The notes beneath the pieces are model-generated. The model made no database searches, was not told the origin of the DNA, and saw only the letters and a list, made by a program, of their open reading frames with translations. Below, piece by piece: positions 5,293-34,506 of a stretch of 34,618 nucleotides of DNA (position 1 is the stretch's first letter; each line of letters starts with the position of its first letter). The DNA is from an uncultured Fimbriimonas sp. Its GTDB lineage: Bacteria; Armatimonadota; Fimbriimonadia; Fimbriimonadales; Fimbriimonadaceae. The translations under genes and the position numbers were made by a program. The stretch lies in the NCBI GenBank assembly GCA_945952345.1, contig CAMFIS010000016.1, forward strand, positions 1 through 34,618, given 5' to 3'.

Positions 5293-5298
5293 GGGTGT

Positions 5299-5811: not shown

Positions 5812-5828
5812 ATCCCCTCAATCTGTCA

Positions 5829-5843: not shown

Positions 5844-5882
5844 CATGATACACGAACTTTAGACAAATAAAGCAAACTTTTA

Positions 5883-5897
5883 GCAAATCTGCTTTGC
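5883..5897 (-). terminator. Weak terminator-like hairpin after sufE
   Basis: Read on the minus strand just after the sufE stop, GCAAA pairs with TTTGC around a 5-nt loop, followed by TAAAAGTTT. It is in the right place to end the sufS-sufE transcript, but the stem is only 5 bp and the T-run is broken, so this is a weak call. Confidence 0.3.
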
Positions 5898-5902
5898 GAT
5901 AA

Positions 5903-15686: not shown

Positions 15687-15688
15687 CA

Positions 15689-17540: not shown

Positions 17541-17590
17541 CCCGCTAATTGCTTTTGTGGCGATTGCTTTCACACAGCGAGAAGAATCCT

Positions 17591-18508
17591 GTGAATTTTG
17601 TGGACTCAAACCTGGTGCAAATTGCCGACTCGACGAGTCGCCCGAAGTACTTTTCGAGCGACGAGCTTTCGGCCATTGCCGCTGTGGCATTCGATGCCGA
17701 CGGGATGGGCCTTGGCGGGCCTTTCACTGCCATTTTTGATAGCTTGACCTTTGGCTATGCGATCTCCGCGACCGCAACCCTCGATGGACAGTGGGGCCTG
17801 CCAAGCGCCCATGAGAAGACCTCGACCAGCCTCACCATTCGCGGTCTCCAAAACCAGGACTCCGCGTATGTCGATGCTTTGTGGAGAGGCGCAATCGTCG
17901 CCCGGGCCACCACCAGTCTTGCCCCGATCGAATCGGTCGCCCTCCAGTGGACCGACGAGCAGATCGATCAACAGATCATCACCGATCTCGGGGCCTTACC
18001 CGCCATGCCACAGCTCGAAACCGAAAGACGAACGCGGCTCCTGGCAAGGATGAAATCGGCGGCCCATCAGCCTAACGCCATCACCGATGCGACGATCGAC
18101 TCCATCCTCACCAAACTCGATGTCGGTACAGTCAGCGATCTCCTCGCGATGGAGCGAGGCGCCCACGATATTGGCGTACTCCAGGTGCAGTTTGGCCAAC
18201 CCGGCCCCGTAAGCCAAAATCCGAAGGTCCTTCCTTTTGCGGGTGCGGTGATGATCCGCAACACCGATTTCTCGGTATCTCAACTCCTGGCCCAAACCAA
18301 GATTGTCCAGGCACAACTCACAAAAGAAGGGTTTAAGATTCCCGCCGAGGAATGGGTTCGAACCCTTCGCCCATTTACCGTTATTTGGGTCGTTCCGGCC
18401 TCAACATTCGACGACACCGGTTGGCCCGGAGCCAACCCCGACCAACGCATATCCCGCGCAACAACCTGGTTGGCCGAGCAAGGGATTGCCCTCATACCCA
18501 AGAAATGA
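17591..18508 (+). CDS. Unknown protein, first gene of the contractile injection system operon
   Basis: I choose GTG 17591 (305 aa) because GAGAAGAA lies about 6 nt before it and the product then begins MNFVDSNLVQIADS. The in-frame TTG at 17549 (319 aa) is the alternative and lies 8 nt after a -10-like box. The protein is soluble with mixed alpha/beta content. A beta-rich N-terminal part (FTAIFDSLTFGYAISATATL, then LTIRGLQNQDSAYVDALWRG) is followed by a helical linker (ETERRTRLLARMKSAAH) and a C-terminal alpha/beta part (RPFTVIWVVPASTFDDTGW). No signal peptide or membrane helix. The sheath gene starts 20 bp downstream. I do not recognise the family; it could be a CIS assembly or cap factor, which is inference from place only. 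Confidence 0.6.
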   Translation: MNFVDSNLVQIADSTSRPKYFSSDELSAIAAVAFDADGMGLGGPFTAIFDSLTFGYAISATATLDGQWGLPSAHEKTSTSLTIRGLQNQDSAYVDALWRGAIVARATTSLAPIESVALQWTDEQIDQQIITDLGALPAMPQLETERRTRLLARMKSAAHQPNAITDATIDSILTKLDVGTVSDLLAMERGAHDIGVLQVQFGQPGPVSQNPKVLPFAGAVMIRNTDFSVSQLLAQTKIVQAQLTKEGFKIPAEEWVRTLRPFTVIWVVPASTFDDTGWPGANPDQRISRATTWLAEQGIALIPKK

Positions 18509-18528
18509 ACCTTCGCTAGGAAATTCCT

Positions 18529-19659
18529 ATGGCTATACCAGCAGCATTCCCATACATAACGGTTGATATCGTTCCACCACCAGCGCCCGCCGCCGAAAGG
18601 TCACCCGGCGTGATTGCCGTCGTTGGCAAAACCCCCAATGGGGCAAATGGCGGTTCTCAACCCGTCAATAAACCCATCGTCGTAGAAACGCTTTCGGACG
18701 CTGCGAACTACTTCGCAAAAGTCAATCCTGACGGAAGCGTCGCCCCAACCGACCTATACAATTCGCTGGTGCTCGCCATGGAGCAAACGCCGAAGCCCTC
18801 CAAGATTTATGGCGTTCGGGTCAACGCCGACGACTATGCCGCCGCTCTCTCTTCGATCGAGGGCGTGGACGACATCACCATGGTCTCCCTGGCAAACGAA
18901 AAGACCGTCGGAACCGCAGCCGCCAATACCGGATTGAATGCGCTGAAGAAGCACGTTGAGTCCGTATCCGCACAAGGATCGCGAAGAATTGGTGTCGCGA
19001 TGGTCGACTCTTCTCGTGTGAAATCCAACACGTATGTCGCCGATACCCTTGCCGATGTTGCTACTGCGCCGAACAGCTTAAAGAGCGATGTCGGACGCAT
19101 GATCATGGCCGCCATTGCAGGATATGAGCCTCAAGTTTCAGTGGTTCTGAAGCCCATCAATGGAATTCAGATTCCAAATGGCAGCCAGTACAGCCCATCG
19201 GAAATCATGGGCCTCGCGCAAGAGGGAATCATTCCGATTATCGATCCAAGCCTGATCGTCGGCGATAGCCTCCACTTTGGCGATGGCCGAACGTTCTCGG
19301 GCAACGCAACCGTCGCGTACATCGATTTCGTCCGCGTCATCGACGACATCGAGTTCCGCCTCAAAGCTGGCCTTATCGGAGCAATCGGAGATTCGAGAAT
19401 CACGAAGGAAGGCATGACTTCGCTCAAGGTCCGCCTTGAGGGCATCCTTGGGCCGCTGCAGCGAAGAGCCGTCATCGACGATTTCCAAGTCGATATTCCG
19501 GTGCTCACGATTCTGAGCATGCCAGAAAGCGCGCGAAATACAACCGACAACGCGATTCTCGTTACCGCAAGGCAAGACCGAAATGTCGAAGTCGTCGTCA
19601 CCGTCAAGTACGGACCAGCCGTTCACCGACTCGGCGTTCGCCTGGTGGTCAAGTTCTAA
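18529..19659 (+). CDS. Contractile tail sheath protein
   Basis: This 376-aa protein forms the contractile outer sheath whose shortening drives the inner tube through a target membrane. Sheath features: the N-terminal strand PYITVDIVPPPAPAAERSPG followed by VIAVVGKTPNGANGG, a Rossmann-like middle (SLAMEQ, KIYGVRVNADDYAAAL), and a conserved C-terminal domain (VAYIDFVRVIDDIEFRLKAG, LEGILGPLQRRAVIDDF, VVVTVKYGPAVHRL). Length is at the short end for sheaths; the surface-exposed insert domains are small. A good ribosome binding site (AGGAAA) is 6-11 nt upstream of the ATG. Only one sheath gene is present, whereas many extracellular CIS carry two or three. Confidence 0.88.
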   Translation: MAIPAAFPYITVDIVPPPAPAAERSPGVIAVVGKTPNGANGGSQPVNKPIVVETLSDAANYFAKVNPDGSVAPTDLYNSLVLAMEQTPKPSKIYGVRVNADDYAAALSSIEGVDDITMVSLANEKTVGTAAANTGLNALKKHVESVSAQGSRRIGVAMVDSSRVKSNTYVADTLADVATAPNSLKSDVGRMIMAAIAGYEPQVSVVLKPINGIQIPNGSQYSPSEIMGLAQEGIIPIIDPSLIVGDSLHFGDGRTFSGNATVAYIDFVRVIDDIEFRLKAGLIGAIGDSRITKEGMTSLKVRLEGILGPLQRRAVIDDFQVDIPVLTILSMPESARNTTDNAILVTARQDRNVEVVVTVKYGPAVHRLGVRLVVKF

Positions 19660-19671
19660 GGGGATAACATT

Positions 19672-20106
19672 ATGGATTGGAACACTAGACTCGTCGTTAA
19701 GTTCACCGACGATGCAAAAGTCGAACACACGATCTCTCCGATCGATTCATTCTCGCCATCTTTCTCGCTGGGTGCGGAGCCGATTCACAGCATCGAGCAA
19801 ACGCATATCGGCGTGATCTACTCGCCCAAGTCGATGAACTTTTCGATCTCGGTCAAGGCGATTGGAGATGTTGTAGCACGCCTTACAAAGCTGGCATTTG
19901 AAGGCACCCGCTTCAGCATTTCGCTGCTCGAAGGCGAAGGAACCGACTGGGCATTTTCCACCATCGTGATGTCCGACTGCGTCATCACGAGTTGTACTCC
20001 GACGAGCGCATCGCCGAGCGGCGCCCCGGGGGCGACGTTCAGCGGATTCAGCCTCGCTTCGGTCTCCACGCCTAAGGCTGGCGTCACTGCCAGTTCGCTG
20101 CCGTAA
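19672..20106 (+). CDS. Tail tube protein
   Basis: This 144-aa protein lies 12 bp after the sheath gene, the normal place and size for the tube subunit (Afp1/Hcp/gp19-like). Its beta-barrel pattern is visible: LVVKFTDDAKVEH, SPSFSLGAEPIHSIEQTHIG, KSMNFSISVKAIG, then a helix (DVVARLTKLAFEG), TRFSISLLEGEG and WAFSTIVMSDCVITSCT. Tube rings stack to form the channel through which cargo is carried. The C-terminus is a flexible Ser/Ala/Pro stretch. The TAA stop overlaps the next ATG by one base. Confidence 0.75.
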   Translation: MDWNTRLVVKFTDDAKVEHTISPIDSFSPSFSLGAEPIHSIEQTHIGVIYSPKSMNFSISVKAIGDVVARLTKLAFEGTRFSISLLEGEGTDWAFSTIVMSDCVITSCTPTSASPSGAPGATFSGFSLASVSTPKAGVTASSLP

Positions 20107-20375
20107 TGGGAAACGAACCTCGTCGACAGGGCGGGCGCGCCATGCGCGTCCGCCGAACGGGTATCGCCCTTGTCCACGAAGGCGAGTTGATCCTGCCTGC
20201 CGCGGGTAGCGAAGCTGAAGGCGAGGTAGTGGCCGATGATGATCGAACTCAAATCGTCTATCGATTTCCCGTGCACATCGAGATTCGATCGGCGAGCCAG
20301 GCGATCGACGTCGACCCTATTGTTGACCAAGTGCTGGATCGACTGGCTCACAGCGTCGACTCCGTAACCATGTAA
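20106..20375 (+). CDS. Small CIS-associated protein, unknown
   Basis: This 89-aa protein is coupled to the tube gene (TAATG). It has a basic N-terminus (NEPRRQGGRAMRVRRTG), then IALVHEGELILPAAGSEAE, a HEGE-x-(I/V)-LPA-x-GSEA pattern that I associate with short proteins in other CIS or tail loci. A beta strand VYRFPVHIEI and a C-terminal helix (DPIVDQVLDRLAHSVD) follow. No known enzymatic motif. Its place between tube and cargo genes suggests an assembly, chaperone or tube-adaptor role, which is inference. Confidence 0.6.
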   Translation: MGNEPRRQGGRAMRVRRTGIALVHEGELILPAAGSEAEGEVVADDDRTQIVYRFPVHIEIRSASQAIDVDPIVDQVLDRLAHSVDSVTM

Positions 20376-20379
20376 TTCC

Positions 20380-23300
20380 ATGCCCGTCATCGTCGAAACC
20401 CCGATCCACCTAATCGTGGACGAAATCTCGGTCACCGAGCGCAGAGCCGAAATCGATCAGGCTCTTCGCCGGGCGATCGAGGCTGCGATGCAGCGAGCAA
20501 AGCTCGATGTGCTCGACGATCGGGGCGGCTACATGGGGGTAAAGATTCTGCCGCCGGAAATCACATACAGCGGTGAAGCCGCGAGGTCGTTCAATCGATC
20601 AGAATTTGCGAGCGACCTTTGGGACTTGATTCTCAATGCGGCCGAACGAACCGGAACATTTGCCCACGCTGCTGCGGCCGAACGAATTGAAACTCCGCTC
20701 CAGGCCACGCCGCAGGAGGTTCGAGATTCCCATCGTTATCATGCGATCATTCGTCGCTACCGGCTGCCGCAATATGACGACGGAAAGAACACCAGTGTGG
20801 AAGTCGACGGCGACGATGAACCTCAGGGTCACTACGTTCGACATTGGACTCCCGTCAATCTTTCGGCGATCAACCCGCAAACGCTATGGAACTCTCTGAG
20901 GGATTACATCGGAGACCAATTTCCTCCGACGGAAGACTCGGCGCTCATCTACCGTCGCAACGAGTCGCCTCTCGAGTTTGGCCTGTTCATGGTTGGAACC
21001 AATGGACGAGGGCTTGTTCGCAATATTGGTGGGTTTCAGAATTACCACTACGATGAGGCGAACCACCGCTTCGTTCCTACTCCTGCCCAAAACATGAAAC
21101 CACAGGAGGGAACGCTCTATCGTTTCCGATTCGACGGCGACGATGCCATCAATGGCGAGCACTTGAGAAGATTTTTCGAGTCCGAAATTAGAGAGCAGCT
21201 CGGGCATTACCAAAGGCCGGAGGGCGTTGGTAACGACGAGTTTGTAAACGCGATCGACCAGACCGTTACCAACGAACTGACTCGGCGAGCTCGTGATCTC
21301 GGACAGAATCGGACGGTCATCATTCTCGAAATGGGGGATTCCCACCTCGTCTTCCCCACCGACTCCGCCACGGAGGCCGCGCTTCCCTTCCAAACGAGTT
21401 GCCGACTTTGGCCATTTTCCACGAACGACTTTGTGGAAGGTCCGGATACAAGCGGTGAAGGCGATGGTTCGGGCGCCGGTCAGGGCTCTGGTGCGCAAGG
21501 AACGAACCGAGGTGGCGGAGGACAAGGAAACGGAAACGGGACCGGAACTCAGGGTGGTGGGGGTCGGCCAGGCTCTCCAATCTTCGTGGGCCAAGATGGA
21601 TCCGGAAATGCCAAATTCCACTTCCCCGGCCTGGGCGGAGAGGATGGTGCAGAACTTACTTGCGAGGCATTTCAGGACGAACCCAGCTGCGATGAGATGG
21701 GAGACATTGGTACCGTCTTCAAAGCTCGAATCGACGAAATTGCGGCACGCCTCGATATTTCGCCGTGCTACCTTCCAGCCCACTTCACCATCACTGCTGC
21801 CACGGTGATCAAGGATCACGCAACAACTTTGGCCAACTACACGGCCTTGGCAGGTCCCGTTTCTTTCTACCAACCTGTCACTGATCCCAATGCCTCGATC
21901 GATGTCGTGCGGATCGTACCGACGGTCTCGCCCGCCGTTCAAATCCTTCGATACTTGGCGGGAACCATTGCGAAGGTTACCGATCTCCAGGACCTCATCC
22001 TTAGCGCGTACGATTCGCCAGCCTTGCGAGAGCGAGTGGTCCGCAACTGGTACAGCAACATCGCTTCGTGGCTCCTGCACTACTTGATGGAAATTTCGAG
22101 CGCGATGGACGATGCGGTCGAAGAGATTTTCGAGCAAGGTTGCCGCGTCGTGTTCCTTCAGCTTCTGGAAACCTCGCGACAACAAATCCAAGGACGCATC
22201 GACAACTTTGCCGTTTACGGTCCGCTGTTTGCGATGATGGTCCAGAAATGGCTTCGCCAGCCTGCCGAATTGACCGACCTAAGAGACCGCCTTAGCCACT
22301 TTGAAGAAGCCCGATGGGTCCGTGATCATAGTTCGGTCCCTGGAGATTCCCTTTTGTCAGACGCGGCGAATACCGCCATCGACTCCAATCCTCTAACCGC
22401 TTGGGTTGGCGCGGCCCATGCAGTCAGCGGTCTCTTTATGCAAGCTCATCAGGCGATGCGCTCGACGGGCGAGGCGGGCGAAATCATCGAAACAAATGGC
22501 GTTGCCCGAATTCGAGACAGTCAGGGCCAGATGTGGACGAAACAGGAATTGGAAGATGCAATTGTCACGGTTCGGGGCGAAGCCGAAGACATCGACCCAC
22601 TGATCAAACAGATTCGCGACCTCCCCGACGTCTTTTCCGAATTCCAAAACCATCCGACGGCGGCCCTAGAAACTCTTCGCAATCTTCTCACCACCATGAT
22701 CGACAACAATGCCGAAATGACGCAGAAAACGATCTGGGATCCGATGTTTGCATTTCGGGCCAGTTCGATGGTGGAGAACATTCCCGGAGCGACCATACCT
22801 GGATCCGAGTACGCGCTGATGGGAATCCATATGCAGGTTCATAGCCTAATCGGGGAATTCTTCCACGGCAGTTACTACTATGCGCGGGGCGTGGACCAAG
22901 CGATTAGCTCCGAACTCGGAAAGCAAGCGATCGAGAACTTTGTTATTGGAGTCGGGATCGTTGCCCTCTGTGTATTTTGTGCTCCACTTGGGTTCCTCGC
23001 CGGCGTCGCTGCCGCCGTCCACGAACTGGATAAAGCCTACGAGCGTGAACGGCTGTTCATGTCGCTCATCGATCCGGAGTTGGTCCTCACGAGGGCAGAG
23101 GTGGAGGTGCAAAAGTTTGCGGCATGGTTGGGTTTCGCCCTCTCTGTCATTCCGGAAGCGGGCACGATACTCGGTACGGCTCGGGCCGGAATTCGTGGCG
23201 GACTCAAAGCCGGACTTCGAGCCGGTGCGCGTGAAGCCGCCGAGTACGCGGCGACAAGAATATCGCGGGAAATTGTCGAATCTCTAGAGCGGGAATTCTT

Positions 23301-23484
23301 GCCCGCTTTCATCCGCGAACTCGCCATGAACGAAGTCATGAATCGAGTCATCGAGACGGCCCTTTCACCAATTCTTGAAGCTGTTCAGCACAACGCCATG
23401 ATCACGACCTCGCCTGGCGGATCGGCCAATGCGGCCCAGATCCTCGACTCACTCGCCCGATCGAGAGGAGGCGCGACACCATGA
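20380..23484 (+). CDS. Very large CIS-associated protein with hydrophobic C-terminal region, cargo or loading factor
   Basis: This 1034-aa protein starts at ATG 20380, 4 bp after the previous stop. Residues 1-345 form a mixed N-terminal part beginning PVIVETPIHLIVDEISV with a YRFRFDGDDAINGEHLRRFF segment. Residues about 355-405 are a Gly-rich linker (GEGDGSGAGQGSG and similar). After it comes a long helical part. Two hydrophobic stretches lie at about 853-876 (FVIGVGIVALCVFCAPLGFLAG) and 905-925 (FAAWLGFALSVIPEAGTILG), followed by Arg/Ala-rich helices. The hydrophobic hairpin plus Gly linker resemble polymorphic toxin delivery proteins. It overlaps the next, toxin-like gene by ATGA. It could be an effector, a toxin carrier or a tape-measure substitute; the sequence does not settle which. 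Confidence 0.6.
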   Translation: MPVIVETPIHLIVDEISVTERRAEIDQALRRAIEAAMQRAKLDVLDDRGGYMGVKILPPEITYSGEAARSFNRSEFASDLWDLILNAAERTGTFAHAAAAERIETPLQATPQEVRDSHRYHAIIRRYRLPQYDDGKNTSVEVDGDDEPQGHYVRHWTPVNLSAINPQTLWNSLRDYIGDQFPPTEDSALIYRRNESPLEFGLFMVGTNGRGLVRNIGGFQNYHYDEANHRFVPTPAQNMKPQEGTLYRFRFDGDDAINGEHLRRFFESEIREQLGHYQRPEGVGNDEFVNAIDQTVTNELTRRARDLGQNRTVIILEMGDSHLVFPTDSATEAALPFQTSCRLWPFSTNDFVEGPDTSGEGDGSGAGQGSGAQGTNRGGGGQGNGNGTGTQGGGGRPGSPIFVGQDGSGNAKFHFPGLGGEDGAELTCEAFQDEPSCDEMGDIGTVFKARIDEIAARLDISPCYLPAHFTITAATVIKDHATTLANYTALAGPVSFYQPVTDPNASIDVVRIVPTVSPAVQILRYLAGTIAKVTDLQDLILSAYDSPALRERVVRNWYSNIASWLLHYLMEISSAMDDAVEEIFEQGCRVVFLQLLETSRQQIQGRIDNFAVYGPLFAMMVQKWLRQPAELTDLRDRLSHFEEARWVRDHSSVPGDSLLSDAANTAIDSNPLTAWVGAAHAVSGLFMQAHQAMRSTGEAGEIIETNGVARIRDSQGQMWTKQELEDAIVTVRGEAEDIDPLIKQIRDLPDVFSEFQNHPTAALETLRNLLTTMIDNNAEMTQKTIWDPMFAFRASSMVENIPGATIPGSEYALMGIHMQVHSLIGEFFHGSYYYARGVDQAISSELGKQAIENFVIGVGIVALCVFCAPLGFLAGVAAAVHELDKAYERERLFMSLIDPELVLTRAEVEVQKFAAWLGFALSVIPEAGTILGTARAGIRGGLKAGLRAGAREAAEYAATRISREIVESLEREFLPAFIRELAMNEVMNRVIETALSPILEAVQHNAMITTSPGGSANAAQILDSLARSRGGATP

Positions 23485-26095: not shown

Positions 26096-26745
26096 TGCGA
26101 TACGCGCTTGCCAGTTTGCTCACTCCCGATCCGGTGGCCGTAAACCCGGATGGATGGACAAATCCAGATTCGACCCTAACGGCGTCTTTACCGATCACCA
26201 CGAGTCTGACCGCCAACGTGCAAGCAAAGATGATCTTCCCCCTGGGACTGGCGAAGCAGGTGGTGCAGATGGATGGGTCAACGGTTTTGGACTCCTCAAC
26301 CGAGCAATGGGAAACTTATCCCGCCATACCAACCGGAGATCGCCTCGATCCACTGATGTCTTGCCCGAAGTTCGTGGTCAAGAATGGAGCGGTGACGCTC
26401 GGCATCGTCCCGTTTGTTAGTGGGTACGCCTTTGGAGTGGGTTCTACCGAACACGGCAAACTCAGCGTGCAGATTCAATTGAATTCATGGCAAGTGTGTT
26501 TGGGCAACCTGCGAGAGACCGGCACGTTTGGTTCGAGAGTTGACTTCTCCTTCCGCCAAGCCGACAAAGCGAGCAACTCGTTTGATATTCCCAAGGTTCA
26601 CCCCTACGTTGTGATGAGGGAGATTGCGAGTCTGCCAGCTCTGCAGGTCGCGGAGGTCGTGATCCTGAGTAACTGGTGGATCCCTCGCATTTACGAAGAA
26701 CTCAAGCCAATGCGTGGTCGAAGCCGCAAGAAGGTGAAAAAGTGA
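26095..26745 (+). CDS. CIS baseplate-region protein, unknown
   Basis: This 216-aa protein is coupled to its neighbour on both sides (TGATG at its start, GTGA at its end), so it is made with the hub. It is beta-rich, with repeats of hydrophobic strands (LTASLPITTSLTANVQAKM, then KFVVKNGAVTLGIVPFVSGY and KLSVQIQLNSWQVCLG) and ends in a very basic tail (RGRSRKKVKK). No membrane helix or catalytic motif. It is placed where other CIS encode a hub adaptor or a LysM-containing protein before the VgrG-like spike. Function is inferred from place only. Confidence 0.55.
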   Translation: MRYALASLLTPDPVAVNPDGWTNPDSTLTASLPITTSLTANVQAKMIFPLGLAKQVVQMDGSTVLDSSTEQWETYPAIPTGDRLDPLMSCPKFVVKNGAVTLGIVPFVSGYAFGVGSTEHGKLSVQIQLNSWQVCLGNLRETGTFGSRVDFSFRQADKASNSFDIPKVHPYVVMREIASLPALQVAEVVILSNWWIPRIYEELKPMRGRSRKKVKK

Positions 26746-28742
26746 GCTTCCTCGACACTCAGGCGAAGAACCAGAAGGCTGGTAACCAAGCCGGTTACGT
26801 GCTGGACTTCTTCAAGATCCAGTCCAATGGGCATGTCGACGAATCATCGGTGGCTCTGTCCGTTTCCTCCGACAATTACTTCACCAAGGTGGAAGCGACA
26901 ATGCCCGCGACGTTTTCAGCTGGGCGGTATGTCTTCGAGATCGAGGGGCTGACCGATGCCGACTATGCCAAGATCGCGCCCGGCAACACGTCGGCGGCAA
27001 GCGTCATTAAGCTCTATCTCTACTGGGGCGACGTGATCAACAGTGTGGCATCGTACTTCACGAATTTCGTGAAGCCGGGCAGCCTATCGGATTCGGACAA
27101 GCCAGATGCCATCGTGGCCGTCCTGCAAATCTTAAAGGTCAGCCGGACCGTGGGCGAGAATCGTTACATCACCAAGGTCGAAGCAATCGAGCGAGTGTTC
27201 TATCAGTGTCGGAACGCGATGACGCCGAGTCATGAGCCCATGCCCTACCGGGACGCGATTCAAACCCTTTGCCAAGCCGCGGTGGTCGACGTCGATCTCT
27301 ATCCCGCCAGCGGAAATCTGACGAATCCGCCAAGCGGCAGCGGAGCCGAAAGTTTCACGTTTGTTCCTGCCGATACTATCGCAAAGAGTCTTCGGGATCT
27401 TGGTAATCGCGTTCAGGAAAGCTCCGGCAAATTTGGCCGAGGAATGCTGATGATTCGAGACGGAAAACTGGTCTTTGGCGTGCGACCGATTCCCTATCCT
27501 ATGGGTACGACACCGGTCGATCTCTTGGCTAGCAATGGACTCGTCAAGGTCGAACTCACGGGATCTTCCGCCTCCGATCCTTTTTCAGACTACTCAGAAG
27601 ACACGGCATCAACTCAGGTAACCCGGCCGTCCTATTCGATCGTCCTTAAGGGGCGACCCGATCTGAAGCCAGGAATGATGGTTCGATTCGATCTTTCGCC
27701 GGAGAATACTGGCGACGTCGAGCCGAACCTCAAGGATTCCCTACTCGGCGTCTTCGCCGGATCGTTTGCCGCAACAGAAGCTATCACCAATCCTAAGTGG
27801 GCGTATATCGAGTCGGTTCAGCATCGACTCGGCCGAGAGCAGGGCTTCATTACCACGCTGGCTTGTATTGGCGTTCCCACATCGGATGGGGATGATGCTT
27901 GGGACGGCAGAACTCCTGTTCCAGCCGGAGCCGCGGCAACACAATCGGACAATGCGACGTCGGCCGACCCAGCCGAGCGAGCCGCTACCGCTATTCGCCG
28001 ACTCTCGGACCAGAGCGATCGACGAGTTGGGCTCGACGTTGCCGAAGTTCGGTCGTTCGTCTCGAACAGCGCTCAAGAGCCAACTAGCCAGACCGAAGTC
28101 GCTTGGTGCGGCCTGATCAACGCCGATGGCCGCCCGAACCAAAGTCGACGCCTCCCAATCTCGCGGCAAATTCGAGTTGTGAAGGAAGGCATTCCGTACG
28201 TTTCGCCTTTCGCTTGGGGCAAGTGCGGGTTGATTCTTCCCCGCTATCCAGGCATGCGGGTGGCGGTAGGGTTCCGTAATGGCGCTCCCTCGGATGCCAT
28301 CGACCTTGGCGGAATCTATGAGACCGGCAAGACGGGAACAAACGCTCAGCCTGGAGACTACTGGCTCTCCCTTCCGGCAAAGGTGCCGGCTTCGCAACGC
28401 CAACAGTTGGGCGAAAGCGACACGCCACAAGACTATTCCGACGCGGTCTCGAACGACCTCATCGACGCCGATGGCCACCGAGTGATCGAAGTTGGCGAGT
28501 TCACCGTTCGGGTCAATGAGCTAAGCGCTCTCAAGAAAGCGGGGGAACGCCCTGCACGAGCCTCGATTGCCAACAGCATCACCATCGAACATGCCAAAGG
28601 AGGCTCCTCGATCGTGTTGAAAGACAACGGGGACATCATCATCACCGGCAAGAACATTACGCTCGACGCCGGCTCGGGCAACATCAACCTCAAAGCATCG
28701 AAGGTCGACGTTGCCGTTTCCTCGGAGATGAACGTGCACTGA
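26742..28742 (+). CDS. VgrG-like baseplate hub and spike protein
   Basis: I choose GTG 26742 (666 aa): it overlaps the previous stop as GTGA and has AAGGTG about 6 nt upstream. An ATG at 26676 inside the upstream gene is less likely. The N-terminal part (VLDFFKIQSNGHVDESSVA, KVEATMPATFSAGRYVFEI) fits the gp27-like hub. The middle (around 470-570) includes an OB-fold-like segment ending PFAWGKCGLILPRYPGMRV and AVGFRNGAPSDAI, as in gp5/VgrG. The last 45 residues show the spike beta-helix rhythm: SIVLKDNGDIIITGKNITL, DAGSGNINLKASKVDV. It forms the trimeric spike under the tube and carries the PAAR-like tip encoded next. No extra effector domain is attached. Confidence 0.82.
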   Translation: MSFLDTQAKNQKAGNQAGYVLDFFKIQSNGHVDESSVALSVSSDNYFTKVEATMPATFSAGRYVFEIEGLTDADYAKIAPGNTSAASVIKLYLYWGDVINSVASYFTNFVKPGSLSDSDKPDAIVAVLQILKVSRTVGENRYITKVEAIERVFYQCRNAMTPSHEPMPYRDAIQTLCQAAVVDVDLYPASGNLTNPPSGSGAESFTFVPADTIAKSLRDLGNRVQESSGKFGRGMLMIRDGKLVFGVRPIPYPMGTTPVDLLASNGLVKVELTGSSASDPFSDYSEDTASTQVTRPSYSIVLKGRPDLKPGMMVRFDLSPENTGDVEPNLKDSLLGVFAGSFAATEAITNPKWAYIESVQHRLGREQGFITTLACIGVPTSDGDDAWDGRTPVPAGAAATQSDNATSADPAERAATAIRRLSDQSDRRVGLDVAEVRSFVSNSAQEPTSQTEVAWCGLINADGRPNQSRRLPISRQIRVVKEGIPYVSPFAWGKCGLILPRYPGMRVAVGFRNGAPSDAIDLGGIYETGKTGTNAQPGDYWLSLPAKVPASQRQQLGESDTPQDYSDAVSNDLIDADGHRVIEVGEFTVRVNELSALKKAGERPARASIANSITIEHAKGGSSIVLKDNGDIIITGKNITLDAGSGNINLKASKVDVAVSSEMNVH

Positions 28743-29065
28743 TGGCTTTTGTTCTCACTACCGGCGCCGATATCGAATGTTCCGCGAGTGGCAAAGTCCA
28801 ACTCAGTGGCAGCCACAAGCTGAAAGTGTCGGGACAGTCCGTTATCACGCCGGATGACGTCAATCACAAGACAATTTCTGGGTGCACGATTGCGAACTCG
28901 AACAGCACCAAGCAATGCACGACCGTCACCAGCGCGTCGGGAGGCTCGCCGAAATTGAAAGTCGACGGGACTGCCGTCGCCATCGACAGCCTTACCGGCA
29001 GCAGCGACGGTACAACCCCGGCAATCTCCGTCAAGTCCGCTGGACAATCGAAACTCAAGGGATAA
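28742..29065 (+). CDS. PAAR-like spike tip protein
   Basis: This 107-aa protein is coupled to the spike gene (TGATG). It starts AFVLTTGADIECSASGKV, the form seen in PAAR-like proteins of extracellular CIS (FVLTT-x-(A/S)-x-I-x-C). Cysteines at 13, 48 and 59 could bind a metal in place of the His/Cys set of classical PAAR proteins. Internal repeats LSGSHKLKVSGQ and GSPKLKVDGTAV, with a final QSKLKG, give the beta-rich cone. It is expected to cap the VgrG-like trimer and sharpen the puncturing tip. Position directly after the spike and before the gp25-like gene is the usual CIS order. Confidence 0.78.
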   Translation: MAFVLTTGADIECSASGKVQLSGSHKLKVSGQSVITPDDVNHKTISGCTIANSNSTKQCTTVTSASGGSPKLKVDGTAVAIDSLTGSSDGTTPAISVKSAGQSKLKG

Positions 29066-29069
29066 CTCA

Positions 29070-29576
29070 ATGGCTAACACCACACTCGACAAGCAAGCAA
29101 TACAGAATCAGGTTCTGGGCCGATCTTTCCGCCTCGAGCAAGTTGTCCCCGGATTTGAAATCGGGAGAGACATCGCGTTTGGCACGGGTCCTAATGGCAA
29201 AGACATCCAGTGGGTTCAAGGCATCGATTGCCTTGGACAAGCCCTCCGCAATGCGCTTACGACTGCGTTGGGCAGCGATGTATTCAACGTCAACTTCGGC
29301 TTCGATGGCCTCAATGCCCTCGCCGAGGAAACCGATCCCGTGATCATGCGCGAACGAGTGCGGATCTCGGTCATAAAAGTCTTACAACGGGACGCCCGCA
29401 TCCGGCGTATCCTCGACGTTAAATTGCTCGATGGGCGGCTTGATCCCTCCACCGGCAACGTCGATTCCACACTTCCGGTGTCGCTCAGCCGCGAGCTCAG
29501 CGTCGTCGTTTCTTTCGAAGTCGTGACGGGCGATCAGTTCACCGTCACGATGGGGCAGGTGAAATCCAATGGCTGA
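29070..29576 (+). CDS. GPW/gp25 family baseplate wedge protein
   Basis: This 168-aa protein starts at ATG 29070, 4 bp after the previous stop. It has the gp25/gpW features: a leading helix (QNQVLGRSFRLEQVVPGF), DIQWVQGIDCLGQALRNAL, GSDVFNVNFGFDGLNAL, then RERVRISVIKVLQRDARIRRI with a final domain strand LSRELSVVVSFEVVTGDQF. The R-x-x-I-x-x-x-L and D-x-R-I-x-x-I pair is the family hallmark. It forms the baseplate inner wedge and is believed to nucleate the sheath. It overlaps the J-like gene by 8 bp. Confidence 0.82.
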   Translation: MANTTLDKQAIQNQVLGRSFRLEQVVPGFEIGRDIAFGTGPNGKDIQWVQGIDCLGQALRNALTTALGSDVFNVNFGFDGLNALAEETDPVIMRERVRISVIKVLQRDARIRRILDVKLLDGRLDPSTGNVDSTLPVSLSRELSVVVSFEVVTGDQFTVTMGQVKSNG

Positions 29577-31020
29577 TTCCAACACGCAAATTCTCGATAT
29601 CGGGGCTGTCCTCTCGCTGGACTCAAAGGTCCACCAAACCACGAATTCCGATGGCTTCGGGATCACCGAAAGTGGTTTTCTGGCCAAGCCCTTTGCCCAG
29701 CTTCTCACCGAGAAACTCAGCCTCGCCCAGATGCTTTTTGGCAACGATATCGACATCTCGTCGGGTTCATCGATTCGAAAGCTCTTGGAGATTTCAGCTC
29801 TGGAAGAAGCTCGAATGTGGGCCGCTCTCGACGCGGCATACGACAACTCTTACGTCACCACTGCCACCGGCGAAGCGCTCTCGAAACTCGGCGCAGAGCT
29901 CGGTATCAGCCGTCCCCACATGGAAGCGCGGGGGACGGTGAAACTCACTTTGGCCGCCGCCTTGCCCGGAGGAATCAACAGCCTGACCATCCCCCGTGGC
30001 TCGCGCATGACAACCAGCGGCGGCCATCAAGTTGCGACCGACGAGACCGTCACTCTCTCGGCTCAAGGGCAATCGGCGGTGATCAAAGTCGTGGCCTTCT
30101 ATCCTGGACCCGAGCACAACCTCGATCCCAATGCAGTTGACGGAACCGCCCATCCGCAAAAGATTAATGACTGGATGCGTGGCGATTCTTCCCTCGAAGA
30201 AATGGTTCATGTGGAAACCCTGGCGGGCAAAACGATGGTCACGATCGACCATACCGCACCGCTGGCTGGAGGCGAGAACTATTGGTCGGACACCCGATAT
30301 CGCCAACTCTTGCTGCGGGCTCCTCGCTCGGTTTGGACTATCGAAGCAATCGAGACCGCCGTCTCCTTGGTGCCCGGAGTTCGGCAAGTGCGCGTCTACG
30401 ACGGCCGTGGCGGACTCGATATCAACCAATCCATCTTCGGCAACTTCAACTTCATCGAGCGAGTCTTCAGCGCCGAACGAGACCTCGGCAGCCCTTACTA
30501 CTTCAGCGTCCTCGTAGCACCGACTCCCGCCGCGATTTGGGATGGACCGACCGGTTTACAGAAGGCCGTCGAAACCGTGATCGAAGACCTTCGGCCGGTC
30601 GGAATCTTCCCTCAGGTCACCAGCGCGCAGGAAGTCGGCATTGGCATCAAAGGCAAGATCGTGGTCAACTATCCGCTACCAAATGGAACCAGGGCTCAGA
30701 TCAATGCCTCCCAAGCCGCGATCGCCCTCAAAAATCGCATCTACGATCTCGTCCGCAACTACATCGAATCGCTCAAAATCCAGGATCCGGTTCGACACTA
30801 CGAAGTTTCGTACGCCATCCTTAGTGACCCCGCAGTGGTGGATGTGCAAGACCTGCATCTCATCCAATACCCACCAGGATTCGACGGTTTCGACCTCAGC
30901 CAAGCGGTCTCGGCCACGGCGGTGACGACCTTCAATCCAGGCCAGAACGTGCAACTTGGCGCCGACCAGGTTCCCGTCTTCCTGGATGCGCCAAACACCA
31001 GCGATTTGGAGATTGTGTAG
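29569..31020 (+). CDS. Baseplate J/gp47-like wedge protein
   Basis: This 483-aa protein has the baseplate J-like pattern: an N-terminal helical start (LTEKLSLAQMLFGNDIDISSG, then IRKLLEISALEEARMWAALD), ATGEALSKLGAELGISRP, the PRGSRMTTSGGHQVATDE strand block and the ENYWSDTRYRQLLLRAPR motif. It continues with TAVSLVPGVRQVRVYDGRGG, as in gp47 proteins (the V-x-x-V-x-G-V-x-x-(A/V)-x-V repeat). It links the wedge to the hub in the baseplate. It overlaps the gp25-like gene by 8 bp, and its TAG stop shares one base with the GTG start of the next gene. Confidence 0.83.
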   Translation: MADSNTQILDIGAVLSLDSKVHQTTNSDGFGITESGFLAKPFAQLLTEKLSLAQMLFGNDIDISSGSSIRKLLEISALEEARMWAALDAAYDNSYVTTATGEALSKLGAELGISRPHMEARGTVKLTLAAALPGGINSLTIPRGSRMTTSGGHQVATDETVTLSAQGQSAVIKVVAFYPGPEHNLDPNAVDGTAHPQKINDWMRGDSSLEEMVHVETLAGKTMVTIDHTAPLAGGENYWSDTRYRQLLLRAPRSVWTIEAIETAVSLVPGVRQVRVYDGRGGLDINQSIFGNFNFIERVFSAERDLGSPYYFSVLVAPTPAAIWDGPTGLQKAVETVIEDLRPVGIFPQVTSAQEVGIGIKGKIVVNYPLPNGTRAQINASQAAIALKNRIYDLVRNYIESLKIQDPVRHYEVSYAILSDPAVVDVQDLHLIQYPPGFDGFDLSQAVSATAVTTFNPGQNVQLGADQVPVFLDAPNTSDLEIV

Positions 31021-33380
31021 TGGCAACCATCCTCGATCAGAACGGCTCAAACTCGATCGCGGCATCGACCCCGAACCTTATCGCAAACTTTCAGGCCGCA
31101 GCAGTTACTTCGACGATCACACCGAATAAGAACGGACTCGCAGTGGTCGACTGGCAAACTCGATTGCCATTGGTGATGGCGGTCCTCAAGAGCTCGATCG
31201 AGGATCACTCATCCATTCGCATGACCGCCACACTCAATCCCGGCACCGATAACCAATCTCTGGGCACTATCGAGTTCGGCGCATTCGCCGAGAAGGGCGC
31301 ATCTCTCCCGCTCTACTGCCCCATCATCGTGCAAGGCGGCTTGCCTGTGCCTGCTTTCTCGATCCAACTCACCCCGCAAACCGTCACCGAAGCCGGAGTC
31401 GCCACTAACGTCGCCGCCAAGAACATCGCCGACCTCATCGACGTCGTGGTCGTCGAGGGCAACATCGGTCGGCTGCTGTACAACCTCAATGCGGAGAAGA
31501 TGCGCATGCGGCGCATGGCTCGCCAGATTCACGCTTCGCGGCAAATAGACTTTGCCCGCCTCGATTCACTTGATCGGATCGGTGCCGATCTCGGTATTGC
31601 CCGGTGCGAAGAAGAAATCTTCTTCGACAAGCCTTCGGGCCAAGTTCTTTCGCGCCATTACATGCAGGGCGGGATCAAGGTAATGGAACCGGATTCGGAT
31701 TATGCGGCTCGCCTCAAAATCTACCAGCCCTTCCTTATGCCGAGTCGGAAATTCCTGGAGGCTCGGCTGAACGGCAGCAGCGAAGATCAGGCATTGATGC
31801 CAATCGTGGGTTATGACAAGCCCGTCACCCTGCAAGAGACGCAAAACACTTTCGCCGTCGCGATTCAACTTGTCGATGTTCAGGCTGCCAACCGGATCAC
31901 GAATTTCCTCAACTACGTTCGCGACGCCATCCTCATCTTCCCGGCCAACATTCCCGCGAACAACACTCGGCATGCGGGCCGCCCGTTGCCCAGTATCACC
32001 GCATCCGAAGTTCTCGCGCTACGAAACAGCATTCGGCAGAATTTCACGATCCCCAATGATCTCGGCCTTGCGCCGATGCTGGCCGGTGCCATCGACCGCG
32101 CCGGCCGGGTTACAAAAGCCCTGGGTGTGAATATCCAATGGACCATCAACAAAGCCTTCGATCCCGCCGGAGGAAGCCGATACCAAATGGGTCTTGGTCT
32201 CGACGTTGTTGGTCCAACCGGTGCCCAGATCGACCAACTCCGAACCGCCATCGCAAGCCAGGCAAGAGCGATCACGTCCGACCAAACTGCCGAGGCGCTG
32301 ATCCGCGATCTGCAGGCCATGACGATTCCATCGAATGCCGACGACCCCAATGCCGCGTGGTTCTGGAACGTTGCTGGCCTGCAGACAGTTCACAAGACTT
32401 CGGCTGGTCCGCTCTATCTTTCTCATTTGCCAACCTTCGGCCTCGCCATTTCAGGCCCCACCGCAGTCAACAACGGAGCCAATATCGGGTTCCAAGGCAA
32501 CTACCATGCACCGGGTGATCCTGGCAGCAACGCGCTCTTGGTTGAGATTCAAAACGCGGCTCAGGAGGAATGGGCGTCGTCTGGAAATCCGGCGTGGACT
32601 TTGCTCAGCGATGCCAACGCCGCCACCCTTATCAACGCCGCCGTGCAACTCCCGGCCGCCAGTCCGGTTTACGCCGCGTGCTCCAGCGCAGGGTGCCAAA
32701 TGTTCGCGAACAACGCGGTCTCGATTCCGCAGCTCAAAGCAATTCCAACCTCGCTTTTCGATGTCATCAAACTGCCGCCCGCCCTCAGCACGGGAATCAT
32801 GGCGAACAACGCCCAGTCGGTGCGCCAGTTCTCCCAACTGGTGACCATGTTCCAACGACTGGGCTTGGCCGCCATGGCCACGTTGGTGAACGCCGCGAAC
32901 GAAATTCACCTCGTGCTTTCCATCACCGGTTTGCCTGAAGTCGGGCTGAACCTGGGCGAGCGTCGATCATCGGGATTGCGATGGTATGTGGTTCCGATTG
33001 GCGGAACGCAGAAAGGGGCGGCCACCATCGATCCATTTGGCAGCGCACCCAACATGCACGGAACGCATGCCGGTCTGGTCGCTGTCGTGTGCCTCGGCTA
33101 CGTTCGCCGCGACTTCGCCGACCCCTACGAGTTCCGGGTTCTTCCCACCGAAGGCAACCTTCTGAACCTACATCAATACGAGTTCCTGATGAACTTCCTC
33201 GAGCAGACCTTCCCCATCGGAATCGAGGTGAACACCTTCGAGCTCAGAAAGTTCTTCGTCGATTTGGATGGCGACGGCGCGGCCGATCCGCTCTCCACCA
33301 ACATATCCAAGACTTATCGCAAGTACTACAACCCGCGAATGCGGGGCATCTACACCAACGAGGAGAAAGCAAATGGCTAG
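31020..33380 (+). CDS. Large second baseplate wedge-like protein
   Basis: This 786-aa protein starts at GTG 31020, sharing one base with the upstream TAG. Residues about 155-245 resemble a fragment of a J-like wedge (LYNLNAEKMRMRRMARQIHA, then LDSLDRIGADLGIARCEEE and MEPDSDYAARLKIYQPFL). The central part (400-640) is Ala/Asn-rich and repetitive in character, without a domain I know. The C-terminus includes a calcium-loop-like motif D748-L-D-G-D-G-A-A-D756 and ends NPRMRGIYTNEEKANG. Size and place match the second large wedge component (Afp12-like) of CIS. Length is similar to other Afp12-type proteins as I recall them. Confident as CIS-associated, less so for the exact role. Confidence 0.62.
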   Translation: MATILDQNGSNSIAASTPNLIANFQAAAVTSTITPNKNGLAVVDWQTRLPLVMAVLKSSIEDHSSIRMTATLNPGTDNQSLGTIEFGAFAEKGASLPLYCPIIVQGGLPVPAFSIQLTPQTVTEAGVATNVAAKNIADLIDVVVVEGNIGRLLYNLNAEKMRMRRMARQIHASRQIDFARLDSLDRIGADLGIARCEEEIFFDKPSGQVLSRHYMQGGIKVMEPDSDYAARLKIYQPFLMPSRKFLEARLNGSSEDQALMPIVGYDKPVTLQETQNTFAVAIQLVDVQAANRITNFLNYVRDAILIFPANIPANNTRHAGRPLPSITASEVLALRNSIRQNFTIPNDLGLAPMLAGAIDRAGRVTKALGVNIQWTINKAFDPAGGSRYQMGLGLDVVGPTGAQIDQLRTAIASQARAITSDQTAEALIRDLQAMTIPSNADDPNAAWFWNVAGLQTVHKTSAGPLYLSHLPTFGLAISGPTAVNNGANIGFQGNYHAPGDPGSNALLVEIQNAAQEEWASSGNPAWTLLSDANAATLINAAVQLPAASPVYAACSSAGCQMFANNAVSIPQLKAIPTSLFDVIKLPPALSTGIMANNAQSVRQFSQLVTMFQRLGLAAMATLVNAANEIHLVLSITGLPEVGLNLGERRSSGLRWYVVPIGGTQKGAATIDPFGSAPNMHGTHAGLVAVVCLGYVRRDFADPYEFRVLPTEGNLLNLHQYEFLMNFLEQTFPIGIEVNTFELRKFFVDLDGDGAADPLSTNISKTYRKYYNPRMRGIYTNEEKANG

Positions 33381-34506
33381 CAACGAGATTCGATATAACG
33401 ACATGTCCGTGACGGACGTCCTAACCACGCTCGATAAACAGGGCATCAAGGGTACCGATGCCAACACCATCGTGGCGGGCTGGATCCTCGAGAACGTGTA
33501 CAAGACCAAGCAAGTCTTCAACTACAAAGAGACCTTCGTGTCCAGCATTCCCGGCTGCATGCCTGGGCCGTTCGTTCGCAAGTTCGTGCACCAAAACTGG
33601 GTGGATGGCGAAGACCTCGTGCAGGCTGGCGATGCCAACGGCAAGGACGGTTTCAACAGTCGCTTCCACAAGATCGAACAGGACCTGGATGAACTCGGCA
33701 ACGAGATTCACACCTTGGCCCAATGCGTGGCGGATATGCGCGCGATGCTCGCCTCCATGCTTGGCGAGATTCGAACCGAGATCAACAACATCTACAGTCA
33801 GCTTCCCGGCACCGACGTGGTCGGTCCCATCCGCCAGTATCCGCACTACGCCTACGAACTGGACACCACGCCGCAATACCTCGGCACTTCCAAGATTCTG
33901 GGCAAGAACATGACGATGTGGCAGACGAAGGAAGGCATCATGACGCTGCCGACCGTCGGCGATCCGCCTCTGAATACTGGTCCTGGCCGCACCGCCACCT
34001 ACCCAGGTTTGCTCGTGCAGTACATGAAGGACAACCCTGCGTACAAGCAGACCTTCCCGGCTGCGGTGGATGTGGATACCATGCGCCAGAAGCTGGGCAC
34101 CAACGAAATCGCGCCGGGCATCACCGTCAACGACGCGCTCGCGATCATGCCAGCGGGCACGAAGTTCGCCACTGCGGACGCTTTGGCTGCCGACGTCACC
34201 GATCGAACGTCATTGGCTCTTTCGTTCACCGGACATACGGATGCGATCAAGGCGAATCTCGCCGGCCTCACCAGCATCGACAAGTCGACCGCGAGTATTG
34301 GCTTAGAGAGTCTCACCAACATTTCGTCTGACCAGCGAACGGCGCTTACGGCGGGCGGAATCAAGACGGCCGCGGACCTCGCGGCGGCCGATCCGATCAA
34401 GATCGGCGCGATCTTGAAGACGGGCGGCGTGACGACGACGGACGGAACGGCGGCAAGCTTGGTCACGAATGCGAAGCTCCTGGATCGGCTAAACATTCGT
34501 GGCTAG
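33373..34506 (+). CDS. CIS protein with helix-hairpin-helix-like C-terminus, possible fibre or adaptor
   Basis: I choose ATG 33373 (377 aa), overlapping the previous stop by 8 bp, with GAGGAG about 8 nt upstream; a start at 33268 would lie inside the upstream gene. The N-terminal 80 residues (VTDVLTTLDKQGIKGTDANT, VAGWILENVYKTKQVFNY) are helical, then a coiled-coil-like stretch follows (FHKIEQDLDELGNEIHTLAQ). The middle is an unrecognised domain with GPIRQYPHYAYELDTTPQY. The C-terminal about 80 residues (LTNISSDQRTALTAGGIKT, AADLAAADPIKIGAIL) match the rhythm of HhH/DUF4332-type helical domains. It is the last gene of the operon in this window, where other CIS encode fibres. Role uncertain. 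Confidence 0.55.
   Translation: MASNEIRYNDMSVTDVLTTLDKQGIKGTDANTIVAGWILENVYKTKQVFNYKETFVSSIPGCMPGPFVRKFVHQNWVDGEDLVQAGDANGKDGFNSRFHKIEQDLDELGNEIHTLAQCVADMRAMLASMLGEIRTEINNIYSQLPGTDVVGPIRQYPHYAYELDTTPQYLGTSKILGKNMTMWQTKEGIMTLPTVGDPPLNTGPGRTATYPGLLVQYMKDNPAYKQTFPAAVDVDTMRQKLGTNEIAPGITVNDALAIMPAGTKFATADALAADVTDRTSLALSFTGHTDAIKANLAGLTSIDKSTASIGLESLTNISSDQRTALTAGGIKTAADLAAADPIKIGAILKTGGVTTTDGTAASLVTNAKLLDRLNIRG

What the first reader, a model, noticed from the sequence alone, without database searches (positions are those of the whole stretch)
17549..34506. A compact, apparently ATPase-less contractile injection system operon
Sheath, tube, VgrG-like spike, PAAR-like tip, gp25-like and J-like wedges lie in one plus-strand operon with start/stop overlaps at most junctions. 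No capsid, portal, terminase, integrase or lysis gene is visible, which argues against a prophage. From established knowledge of extracellular CIS (Afp/PVC-type), one would expect an AAA+ ATPase, a LysM-type protein, a tape measure and a tube cap. None is recognisable here. Instead two very large cargo-like proteins sit in the middle of the structural genes. This may be a reduced or divergent CIS lineage.
Basis: partly seen in the sequence, partly recalled or inferred. Interest (0 to 1): 0.8.

Follow-up and report, generated by a model that had tools for sequence, protein, structure and literature searches.

The report
ATPase-less toxin-injecting phage-tail operon
A bacterial genome carries a complete set of genes for a spring-loaded molecular syringe that looks like a headless phage tail with toxins where the length-setting ruler protein normally sits, lacks the usual loading motor, and belongs to a scattered family that standard annotation hardly recognises.

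Summary
Window 17591-34506 is a tight 14-gene plus-strand operon for a contractile injection system. The contig ends 112 bp after the last gene, so the window cannot show that an ATPase is missing; relatives can. The cassette recurs in 25 further genomes of several phyla, among them a single-contig genome of the same genus where opposite-strand genes follow. No Pvc16-type cap, Phage_sheath_1 or phage portal match lies within 30 kb on a cassette contig in 24 genomes, nor any listed AAA match in 12, while the same searches found ordinary eCIS loci elsewhere in some of them. The sheath has no match in 50,697 phage records; of 132 called cassette ORFs (w5, w6 not included) 2 match Pfam at 0.001. 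The order follows a Mu tail, with extra genes. The tape-measure place holds w5 and w6; w6's C-terminal toxin varies (Ntox4 here; Endonuclea_NS_2, Tox-SHH or a nuclease-like motif elsewhere). Best reading: a headless, ATPase-independent toxin injector whose payload is built in during tube assembly. A new variant of a known kind, rare and patchy, probably spread partly horizontally.

The parts
17591..18508 (+). w1, conserved protein of unknown fold, about 305 aa, in the tail-terminator place upstream of the sheath
   Evidence: 26 of 26 regions; alignment A4; no Pfam, PHROG or NCBIfam match and no credible PDB match; place compared with Mu gp37
18529..19659 (+). w2, contractile sheath, 376 aa, with a 15-residue in-frame gap relative to the 29 other aligned sheaths
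   Evidence: PHROG tail sheath; 653 related proteins among 8000 candidates scored; 26 of 26 regions
19672..20106 (+). w3, inner tube protein, 144 aa, named by place; only weak Hcp-like matches
   Evidence: 26 of 26 regions; Hcp-type chains at E 0.36-0.45
20106..20375 (+). w4, 89 aa, in the tail-assembly-chaperone place
   Evidence: 24 of 26 regions; alignment A14
20380..23484 (+). w5, 1034 aa, proposed payload carrier in the tape-measure place; hydrophobic segment around residues 855-873
   Evidence: 25 of 26 regions by profile, the 26th by BLAST to another w5; hydropathy; divergently encoded in Myxococcus
23481..25607 (+). w6, 708 aa, modular toxin: conserved N-terminal part, PD-(D/E)XK-like motif near residue 337, C-terminal Ntox4 domain 586-666
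   Evidence: Ntox4 9.2e-8, over the curated cut-off; motif; other toxin domains in relatives; profile in 18 of 26 regions
25604..26095 (+). w7, 163 aa, in the tube-initiator (gpU/gp43) place
   Evidence: 26 of 26 regions; alignment A6; P2 U ranks first but does not exceed shuffles
26095..26745 (+). w8, 216 aa, hub-region protein of unknown fold
   Evidence: 26 of 26 regions; alignment A7
26742..28742 (+). w9, VgrG-like hub plus spike, 666 aa, GTG start
   Evidence: 26 of 26 regions; Mu hub gp44 ranks first and spike gp45 second, in hub-then-spike order; hub score above 20 of 20 shuffles
28742..29065 (+). w10, PAAR-like tip, 107 aa, three invariant cysteines
   Evidence: 20 of 26 regions; alignment A11; the family name is by place and recalled resemblance only
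29070..29576 (+). w11, gp25-like baseplate wedge, 168 aa
   Evidence: PHROG baseplate 8.6e-9; P2 W above 20 of 20 shuffles; 25 of 26 regions
29569..31020 (+). w12, gpJ-like baseplate wedge, 483 aa
   Evidence: Pfam Baseplate_J 9.3e-13; PHROG 3.9e-46; 26 of 26 regions
31020..33380 (+). w13, large protein in the third-wedge (gpI) place, 786 aa, GTG start
   Evidence: 26 of 26 regions; best phage match is P2 J, not the collinear I, above 20 of 20 shuffles
33373..34506 (+). w14, about 377 aa, last gene, in the tail-fibre place; conserved N-terminal part, variable C-terminal part
   Evidence: 26 of 26 regions; alignment A13; ATG at 33373 seen

Best explanation
This is a complete operon for a headless contractile injector of a distinct lineage. 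Shown by sequence: sheath, gp25-type and gpJ-type wedges, a gene order that follows a Mu tail, a cassette conserved across phyla without a recognisable AAA+ ATPase or eCIS-type cap beside it, and a modular toxin (w6) where phages encode the tape measure. Inferred: the tube polymerises on the baseplate around w5, which acts as a tape-measure-like carrier, perhaps helped by w4; w6 is packed with it, so the payload is built in during assembly and no loading ATPase is needed; w1 closes the far end; w14 binds the target. On contraction the tube is driven through the target envelope, w5 helps membrane passage, and the nuclease-type toxin of w6 acts inside, most likely in competing bacteria.
For: Nine of 14 families in 26 of 26 regions, all 14 in 13 of 26, in one order apart from a relocated w5 in Myxococcus (many of these sequences also built the profiles). 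In 7 of the 25 regions other than the window the next called gene after w14 lies on the other strand, among them the single-contig same-genus genome. Sheath: phrog_23 in 22 of 30 relatives, phrog_279 in 11, phrog_205 in 6. w9, w11, w12 and w13 exceed 20 of 20 shuffles against Mu/P2 proteins. Control: canonical sheath in 11 of 24 genomes, Pvc16_N in 9 of 24, and in the 12 genomes also searched for AAA, 5 of 7 loci with both have a listed AAA match within 3 kb of Pvc16_N; none of these lies within 30 kb of a cassette. Toxin exchange in the w6 place: Ntox4 in two regions, Endonuclea_NS_2 and Tox-SHH in one each, nuclease-like motif in 9 of 26 regions (pattern written after seeing the alignment). 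SUKH-1-like gene after one w6 (below the curated cut-off). w5 as effector or carrier: divergently encoded in Myxococcus with a P-loop. In PVC the ATPase Pvc15 is reported to be needed for payload loading (PMC11495950, passages), so its absence calls for another route.
Against: w5 has no detectable similarity to Mu gp42 or P2 T; its role rests on place and modest hydrophobicity, and the hydropathy test is not specific: peaks of 2.0 or more in 17 of 25 w5 but also in 8 of 27 w13. In Myxococcus the place between tube and w7 holds only w4. No immunity gene lies between w6 and w7 in the window. A trans-acting ATPase elsewhere cannot be excluded: G000 has 19 PF00004 matches, only part of them listed, and many contigs end near the cassette. 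The sheath and w7 comparisons with phage proteins do not exceed shuffles. The window's sheath lacks 15 residues that the 29 aligned relatives have, so this copy may not work. No particle has been seen.
Confidence: 0.55

Rival explanations
1. An old R-type tailocin lineage that kills by membrane depolarisation; w5 is a true but diverged tape measure and the toxin domains are a minor extra.
For: Lack of ATPase, Mu-like gene order and compact operon are tailocin-like. Two of 111 flanking proteins match a lysozyme family (Glyco_hydro_25); whether they belong to the operon was not checked, and lysis genes were not searched for.
Against: Toxin modules occur in the w6 place across the family; the sheath has no phage match; w5 is moved out of its place in Myxococcus.
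Confidence: 0.22
2. A member of the Afp/PVC eCIS family that has lost or relocated its ATPase and cap and uses trans-acting ones.
For: Several relatives also hold canonical eCIS loci with an ATPase.
Against: The window's draft genome and the same-genus genome have no PF04984 or PF14065 match at E 0.001; of the core eCIS Pfams only Baseplate_J was seen among 132 cassette ORFs.
Confidence: 0.08
3. An intracellular or cell-bound device acting on the producer itself (as reported for Streptomyces CIS) rather than on neighbours.
For: No immunity gene beside the window's toxin; Streptomyces CIS are described as cytoplasmic (PMC10066040 and PMC12237407, abstracts in the listing). Release genes were not searched for.
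Against: Exchangeable nuclease-type toxins and a SUKH-1-like neighbour in one relative are the pattern of conflict between bacteria.
Confidence: 0.15
4. A decaying prophage remnant with no function.
For: The window's sheath lacks 15 residues conserved in its family.
Against: All 14 frames are open; the cassette is kept in 26 genomes; no portal match lies on a cassette contig within 200 kb in 24 genomes, though many contigs are shorter.
Confidence: 0.04

Closest known systems
Contractile tail of phage Mu (and the F and V tail operons of P2)
   Same: Order: terminator place, sheath, tube, chaperone place, tape-measure place, initiator, hub/spike, gp25, gpJ, third wedge, fibre; no ATPase known in these tails (recalled)
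   Different: Portal family absent from the neighbourhood; toxin proteins in the tape-measure place; extra genes w6, w8 and w10; very weak sequence similarity
R-type tailocins (pyocins, diffocins)
   Same: Headless, no ATPase, compact operon (recalled)
   Different: Tailocins carry no injected toxin (recalled); here modular toxins are part of the cassette
Extracellular CIS of the Afp/PVC type
   Same: Headless, toxin-carrying tail; VgrG-like and PAAR-like parts by place
   Different: No AAA+ ATPase or DUF4255/Pvc16 cap found, a single sheath gene, no LysM match; toxins in mid-operon, whereas eCIS toxins are reported at the 3' end
Tape-measure-related CIS effectors Sle1 and Tme of Streptomyces (PMC13277306 abstract and passages; PMC11126660 title and abstract in a listing)
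   Same: A tape-measure-like protein serves as effector with exchangeable functional domains
   Different: Sle1 is tied to DUF4157 proteins and lies just upstream of the sheath gene; w5 shows no tape-measure similarity here (coiled coils were not tested) and the toxin is mostly a second protein, w6
Type VI secretion
   Same: Contractile delivery of nuclease toxins, sometimes with immunity genes (recalled)
   Different: No TssB/TssC pair, ClpV or membrane-complex match among the cassette proteins scanned

Membership tests
Contractile injection system in the broad sense | Sheath, tube, spike and gp25/gpJ baseplate genes together | tested here: met
   Sheath and wedges by PHROGs and Pfam; tube and spike only by place and weak profiles
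Extracellular CIS (Afp/PVC type) | AAA+ ATPase in the gene cluster | tested here: not met
   No PF00004 match listed in 12 genomes lies within 70 kb of a cassette (about 150 matches listed, weaker ones not); no AAA match in the cassette proteins scanned
Extracellular CIS (Afp/PVC type) | DUF4255/Pvc16_N cap protein | tested here: not met
   PF14065 in 9 of 24 genomes, none on a cassette contig within 30 kb
Extracellular CIS (Afp/PVC type) | Core Pfam set (Phage_sheath_1, T4_gp19, Phage_GPD, PAAR, GPW_gp25, Baseplate_J) | tested here: not met
   Of these only Baseplate_J matched, in 2 of 132 ORFs at 0.001 and in the window's w12; list from PMC8213781 passages
R-type tailocin | No ATPase and no head genes | tested here: met
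   AAA as above; of head genes only the portal was searched
R-type tailocin | Tape measure protein | tested here: inconclusive
   w5 occupies the place but shows no similarity to Mu gp42 or P2 T
R-type tailocin | No toxin payload | tested here: not met
   Toxin domains in w6; that they are injected is inferred
Type VI secretion system | Two-part TssB/TssC sheath, ClpV and TssJLM complex | tested here: not met
   No such match among cassette proteins scanned
Prophage | Portal, capsid, terminase or integrase next to the tail genes | tested here: inconclusive
   Portal PF04860: no match on a cassette contig within 200 kb in 24 genomes. Capsid, terminase and integrase were not searched singly; the scan of 111 flanking proteins showed 25 of 105 families, none of these four
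Polymorphic toxin system | Conserved N-terminus with exchangeable C-terminal toxins | tested here: met
   w6 family
Polymorphic toxin system | Adjacent immunity gene | tested here: inconclusive
   SUKH-1-like gene after one relative's w6, 21.9 bits against a cut-off of 25.4; none between w6 and w7 in the window

The most novel reading that the evidence does not exclude
A cross-phylum lineage of contractile injection systems in which a toxin carrier has taken the tape measure's place, so that the tube is built around its own payload and needs neither a loading ATPase nor an eCIS-type cap; it could have gone unnoticed because its proteins match almost no Pfam models and because surveys require eCIS core genes or remove ATPase-less tail clusters as phages and tailocins.
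Probability: 0.45. Interest if true: 0.85.

Novelty: new variant of a known kind. Interest (0 to 1): 0.7.

Why it matters
If right, contractile toxin injectors need no loading motor when the payload is assembled in place like a tape measure, which gives a direct test of how cargo enters the tube. It also points to a group of injection systems that Pfam-based annotation largely misses, found in some genomes beside ordinary eCIS loci, with exchangeable toxins as a built-in part of the cassette.

Tried and rejected
Sequence searches of the PDB gave nothing significant: sheath, w5 only low-complexity hits from 0.034, w1 an aldehyde dehydrogenase at 0.01 judged chance, tube Hcp-type chains at 0.36-0.45, w7 none, w9 a tail-tip protein at 0.67 and a Vgr-type chain at 0.88 among four weak hits, w10 one hit at 0.44, w13 a Phi92 protein at 0.051. 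A scan of genome contigs with the window's sheath alone failed; the alignment found 33 loci. A protein search with w5 listed itself and two relatives; only 8000 candidates were scored.

The idea that the w4 motif goes with w6 was dropped: four regions with w6 lack the strict motif and three without a w6 hit have it. Reading the 1,590-aa w5 proteins as w5-w6 fusions was dropped; they are a second w5 type. Naive gene calling in high-GC genomes gave false antisense ORFs. The first profile-guided count was inflated for w8 and w10 by overlapping false ORFs, with cleaner alignments, replaces it (w10 fell from 24 to 20, w4 from 25 to 24, w11 rose from 24 to 25). A few of the 132 ORFs are such false ORFs.

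Literature: ten searches of the open-access library did not bring up a description of this lineage; the 2019 eCIS catalogue and most subscription papers are not held, so prior description is possible. Seen as passages: PMC12210884, PMC8213781, PMC10598620, PMC11566945, PMC11297309, PMC11915804, PMC11495950. PMC13277306: abstract and passages. Others: search listings only.
Full report
What is there. The window is one whole contig (34,618 bp) of a 304-contig assembly. From 17591 to 34506 fourteen plus-strand genes fill 99.9% of the DNA without internal stops, and 9 of 13 junctions overlap by 1-8 bp, taking the ATG at 33373 for w14. The contig ends 112 bp after the last gene, so 'no ATPase' could not be decided from the window.

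Identity of the parts. w12 matches Baseplate_J and w11 baseplate wedges of PHROGs. The sheath (w2) matches PHROG tail-sheath families: among 30 relatives phrog_23 in 22, phrog_279 in 11 and phrog_205 in 6, best E 5.2e-14. Tube, hub/spike, tip and third wedge rest on place and weak profiles. Against 24 tail proteins of Mu and P2, the collinear protein ranks first for w2, w3 (over 18 columns only), w7, w9, w11 and w12; w13 has P2 J first rather than the collinear I. Of six comparisons put to 20 shuffles each, w9, w11, w12 and w13 exceed all of them, w2 and w7 do not. w1, w4, w5, w6, w8, w10 and w14 show no such similarity. The order follows that of Mu: terminator, (gp38), sheath, tube, chaperone, tape measure, initiator, hub, spike, three wedges, fibre (PMC11915804 passages; record annotation, which labels gp37 a portal protein where the paper has a terminator). 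w6, w8 and w10 are extra.

A conserved cassette. A sheath profile found 33 loci in named records. I examined 24 of these 33 plus the window and G008; L013, L016, L018, L019, L020, L022, L025, L026 and L029 were left out, being short or close kin of others. With profiles from curated alignments, searched against stop-to-stop frames, w1, w2, w3, w7, w8, w9, w12, w13 and w14 are found in 26 of 26 regions, w5 and w11 in 25, w4 in 24, w10 in 20 and w6 in 18; 13 of 26 have all fourteen, and the order is kept in all but for w5 in Myxococcus. Many of these sequences also built the profiles, and in one Paraburkholderia region the missing w11 falls at a stretch I had not fetched. The Deltaproteobacterium region, without a w5 profile hit, has a 1,384-aa protein in the same place that matches the Myxococcus w5 at 1.6e-51. 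Actinomycetospora has an Ntox4 protein in the w6 place that the w6 profile misses. Hosts include Armatimonadota, Cyanobacteriota, Actinomycetota, Planctomycetota, Myxococcota and alpha-, beta- and gammaproteobacteria (record titles; grouping mine).

Spread. In short-search trees of sheath and gpJ, starred branches force at least two changes each for Actinomycetota and alphaproteobacteria. Yet labels are clustered: 11 and 12 changes in all against a least possible 9 and shuffled means of about 15. So descent within groups and transfer between them both seem present. The family is rare: 1 of 396 Actinomycetota, 1 of 398 Pseudomonadota and 1 of 292 Cyanobacteriota, each time the genome used as centre, 2 of 291 in the own phylum, but 22 of 300 in the family of Micromonospora, three of them distant and five already in my set.

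No ATPase, cap or head found. In the single-contig genome G008 the cassette runs from w1 to w14 and is followed by opposite-strand genes that match no cassette family. In 7 of the 25 regions other than the window the next called gene after w14 lies on the other strand. In 12 genomes no listed PF00004 match lies within 70 kb of a cassette; matches weaker than about 1e-13 were not listed. Pvc16_N occurs in 9 of 24 genomes and Phage_sheath_1 in 11 of 24, none within 30 kb of a cassette; the nearest is a second sheath about 31 kb away on the same contig of M. trifolii. Among the 12 genomes searched for AAA, 7 loci have sheath and Pvc16_N on one contig within 20 kb; 5 of them (G105:C40, G111:C8, G116:C57, G116:C49, G121:C1) also have a listed AAA match within 3 kb of Pvc16_N, two (G113:C10, G116:C134) do not. 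So the searches do find ordinary eCIS, in some of the same genomes. No portal match lies on a cassette contig within 200 kb in 24 genomes. Many contigs end well short of these distances. Of 111 flanking proteins the 25 of 105 Pfam families shown include no capsid, portal, terminase or integrase; they do include regulators, RimK-type ATP-grasp proteins (5), AAA_16 (2) and Glyco_hydro_25 (2). The sheath has no match in 50,697 phage records nor a confirmed one in a pattern scan of viral contigs, and one distant match (35%) on a Streptomyces plasmid. gpJ has partial matches under 30% identity in 11 phage records.

Hardly visible to annotation. Of 132 called cassette ORFs from 12 families (w5 and w6 not included; a few are false overlapping ORFs) 2 match a Pfam model at 0.001, both Baseplate_J. 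[quoted passage not shown] a metagenome survey removed clusters with fibre and tape measure but without the ATPase and plug as phages or tailocins (PMC12210884 passages). That these rules passed over this lineage is inference.

Payload. w6 has a shared N-terminal part and differing ends: Ntox4 in the window (9.2e-8) and in Actinomycetospora (3.3e-22), Endonuclea_NS_2 and Tox-SHH in one member each of 12 scanned, and a motif resembling PD-(D/E)XK nucleases in 9 of 26 regions (name recalled, pattern written after seeing the alignment). In one Rhodobacteraceae region the gene after w6 resembles SUKH-1, a family recalled as immunity proteins, at 2.8e-4 and below the curated cut-off. w5 comes in two types that share an N-terminal region of roughly 90 residues in BLAST pairs. 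Hydropathy peaks of 2.0 or more occur in 17 of 25 w5 proteins, the window's among them, but also in 8 of 27 w13 proteins, so this is weak evidence for a membrane segment. In Myxococcus only w4 lies between tube and w7, and a 1,510-aa w5 relative (1.9e-125) is encoded divergently upstream of w1, with a P-loop in its C-terminal part. This speaks for w5 as effector or carrier rather than a mere ruler.

How it most likely works. In Mu the tube lumen is filled by the tape measure (PMC11915804 passages); in PVC the ATPase Pvc15 is reported to be needed for payload loading (PMC11495950 passages). I infer that here the payload is laid into the tube during assembly, with w5 as carrier in the tape-measure place and w6 as toxin, so that no loading ATPase is needed. 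Contraction would drive the tube through the target envelope and release w5 and w6. Ejection, membrane passage, nuclease action and bacterial targets are not shown. That tape-measure-like proteins serve as CIS effectors is in print for Streptomyces (PMC13277306 abstract and passages).

Verdict. The system belongs to contractile injection systems in the broad sense, fails the defining tests of Afp/PVC eCIS and of T6SS that were made, and resembles a tailocin with toxins. I rate it a new variant of a known kind, with the caveat that the closest catalogues could not be read.

Noticed in passing
window 18529-19659: The sheath lacks 15 residues (45 bp, in frame) present in the 29 other aligned sheaths; database protein P0003 is otherwise identical in the alignment and has them. 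It may be strain variation or an assembly error.
   Followed up: partly
window 9580-14021, minus strand: Two neighbouring genes with PSCyt1/DUF1549/DUF1553 and DUF1501 domains, a set named after Planctomycetes, in an Armatimonadota-like genome.
   Followed up: no
window 1-6000: GC content 0.45-0.50 against 0.51-0.61 in the rest, with mostly short ORFs; possibly a foreign island.
   Followed up: no
window 14133-17140: Two large overlapping ORFs (517 and 512 aa) upstream of the operon with no Pfam or PHROG match and no counterpart in the 25 other regions.
   Followed up: partly
L035:4344-8873 (minus strand): Myxococcus w5 relative, 1,510 aa, with a P-loop in its C-terminal part that recalls zeta-type toxins (recalled); no significant Pfam match.
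   Followed up: partly
L042:1-1768: Nodosilinea: a long reading frame before w7 ends in a stretch resembling a restriction-type nuclease, perhaps the end of a w5 or w6 protein.
   Followed up: no
NZ_CP109336.1:195761-196702: A distant sheath relative (35% identity) on a Streptomyces canus plasmid, hinting at spread by plasmids.
   Followed up: no
G105:C40, G111:C8, G116:C57, G116:C49, G121:C1: Ordinary eCIS loci (sheath, Pvc16_N, AAA) in genomes that also hold the new cassette: two systems side by side.
   Followed up: partly
Downstream of w14 in L056, L060, L058, L057, L059, L054: A shared gene family of 305-537 aa follows the cassette in six actinobacterial, myxobacterial and deltaproteobacterial regions; not identified.
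   Followed up: no
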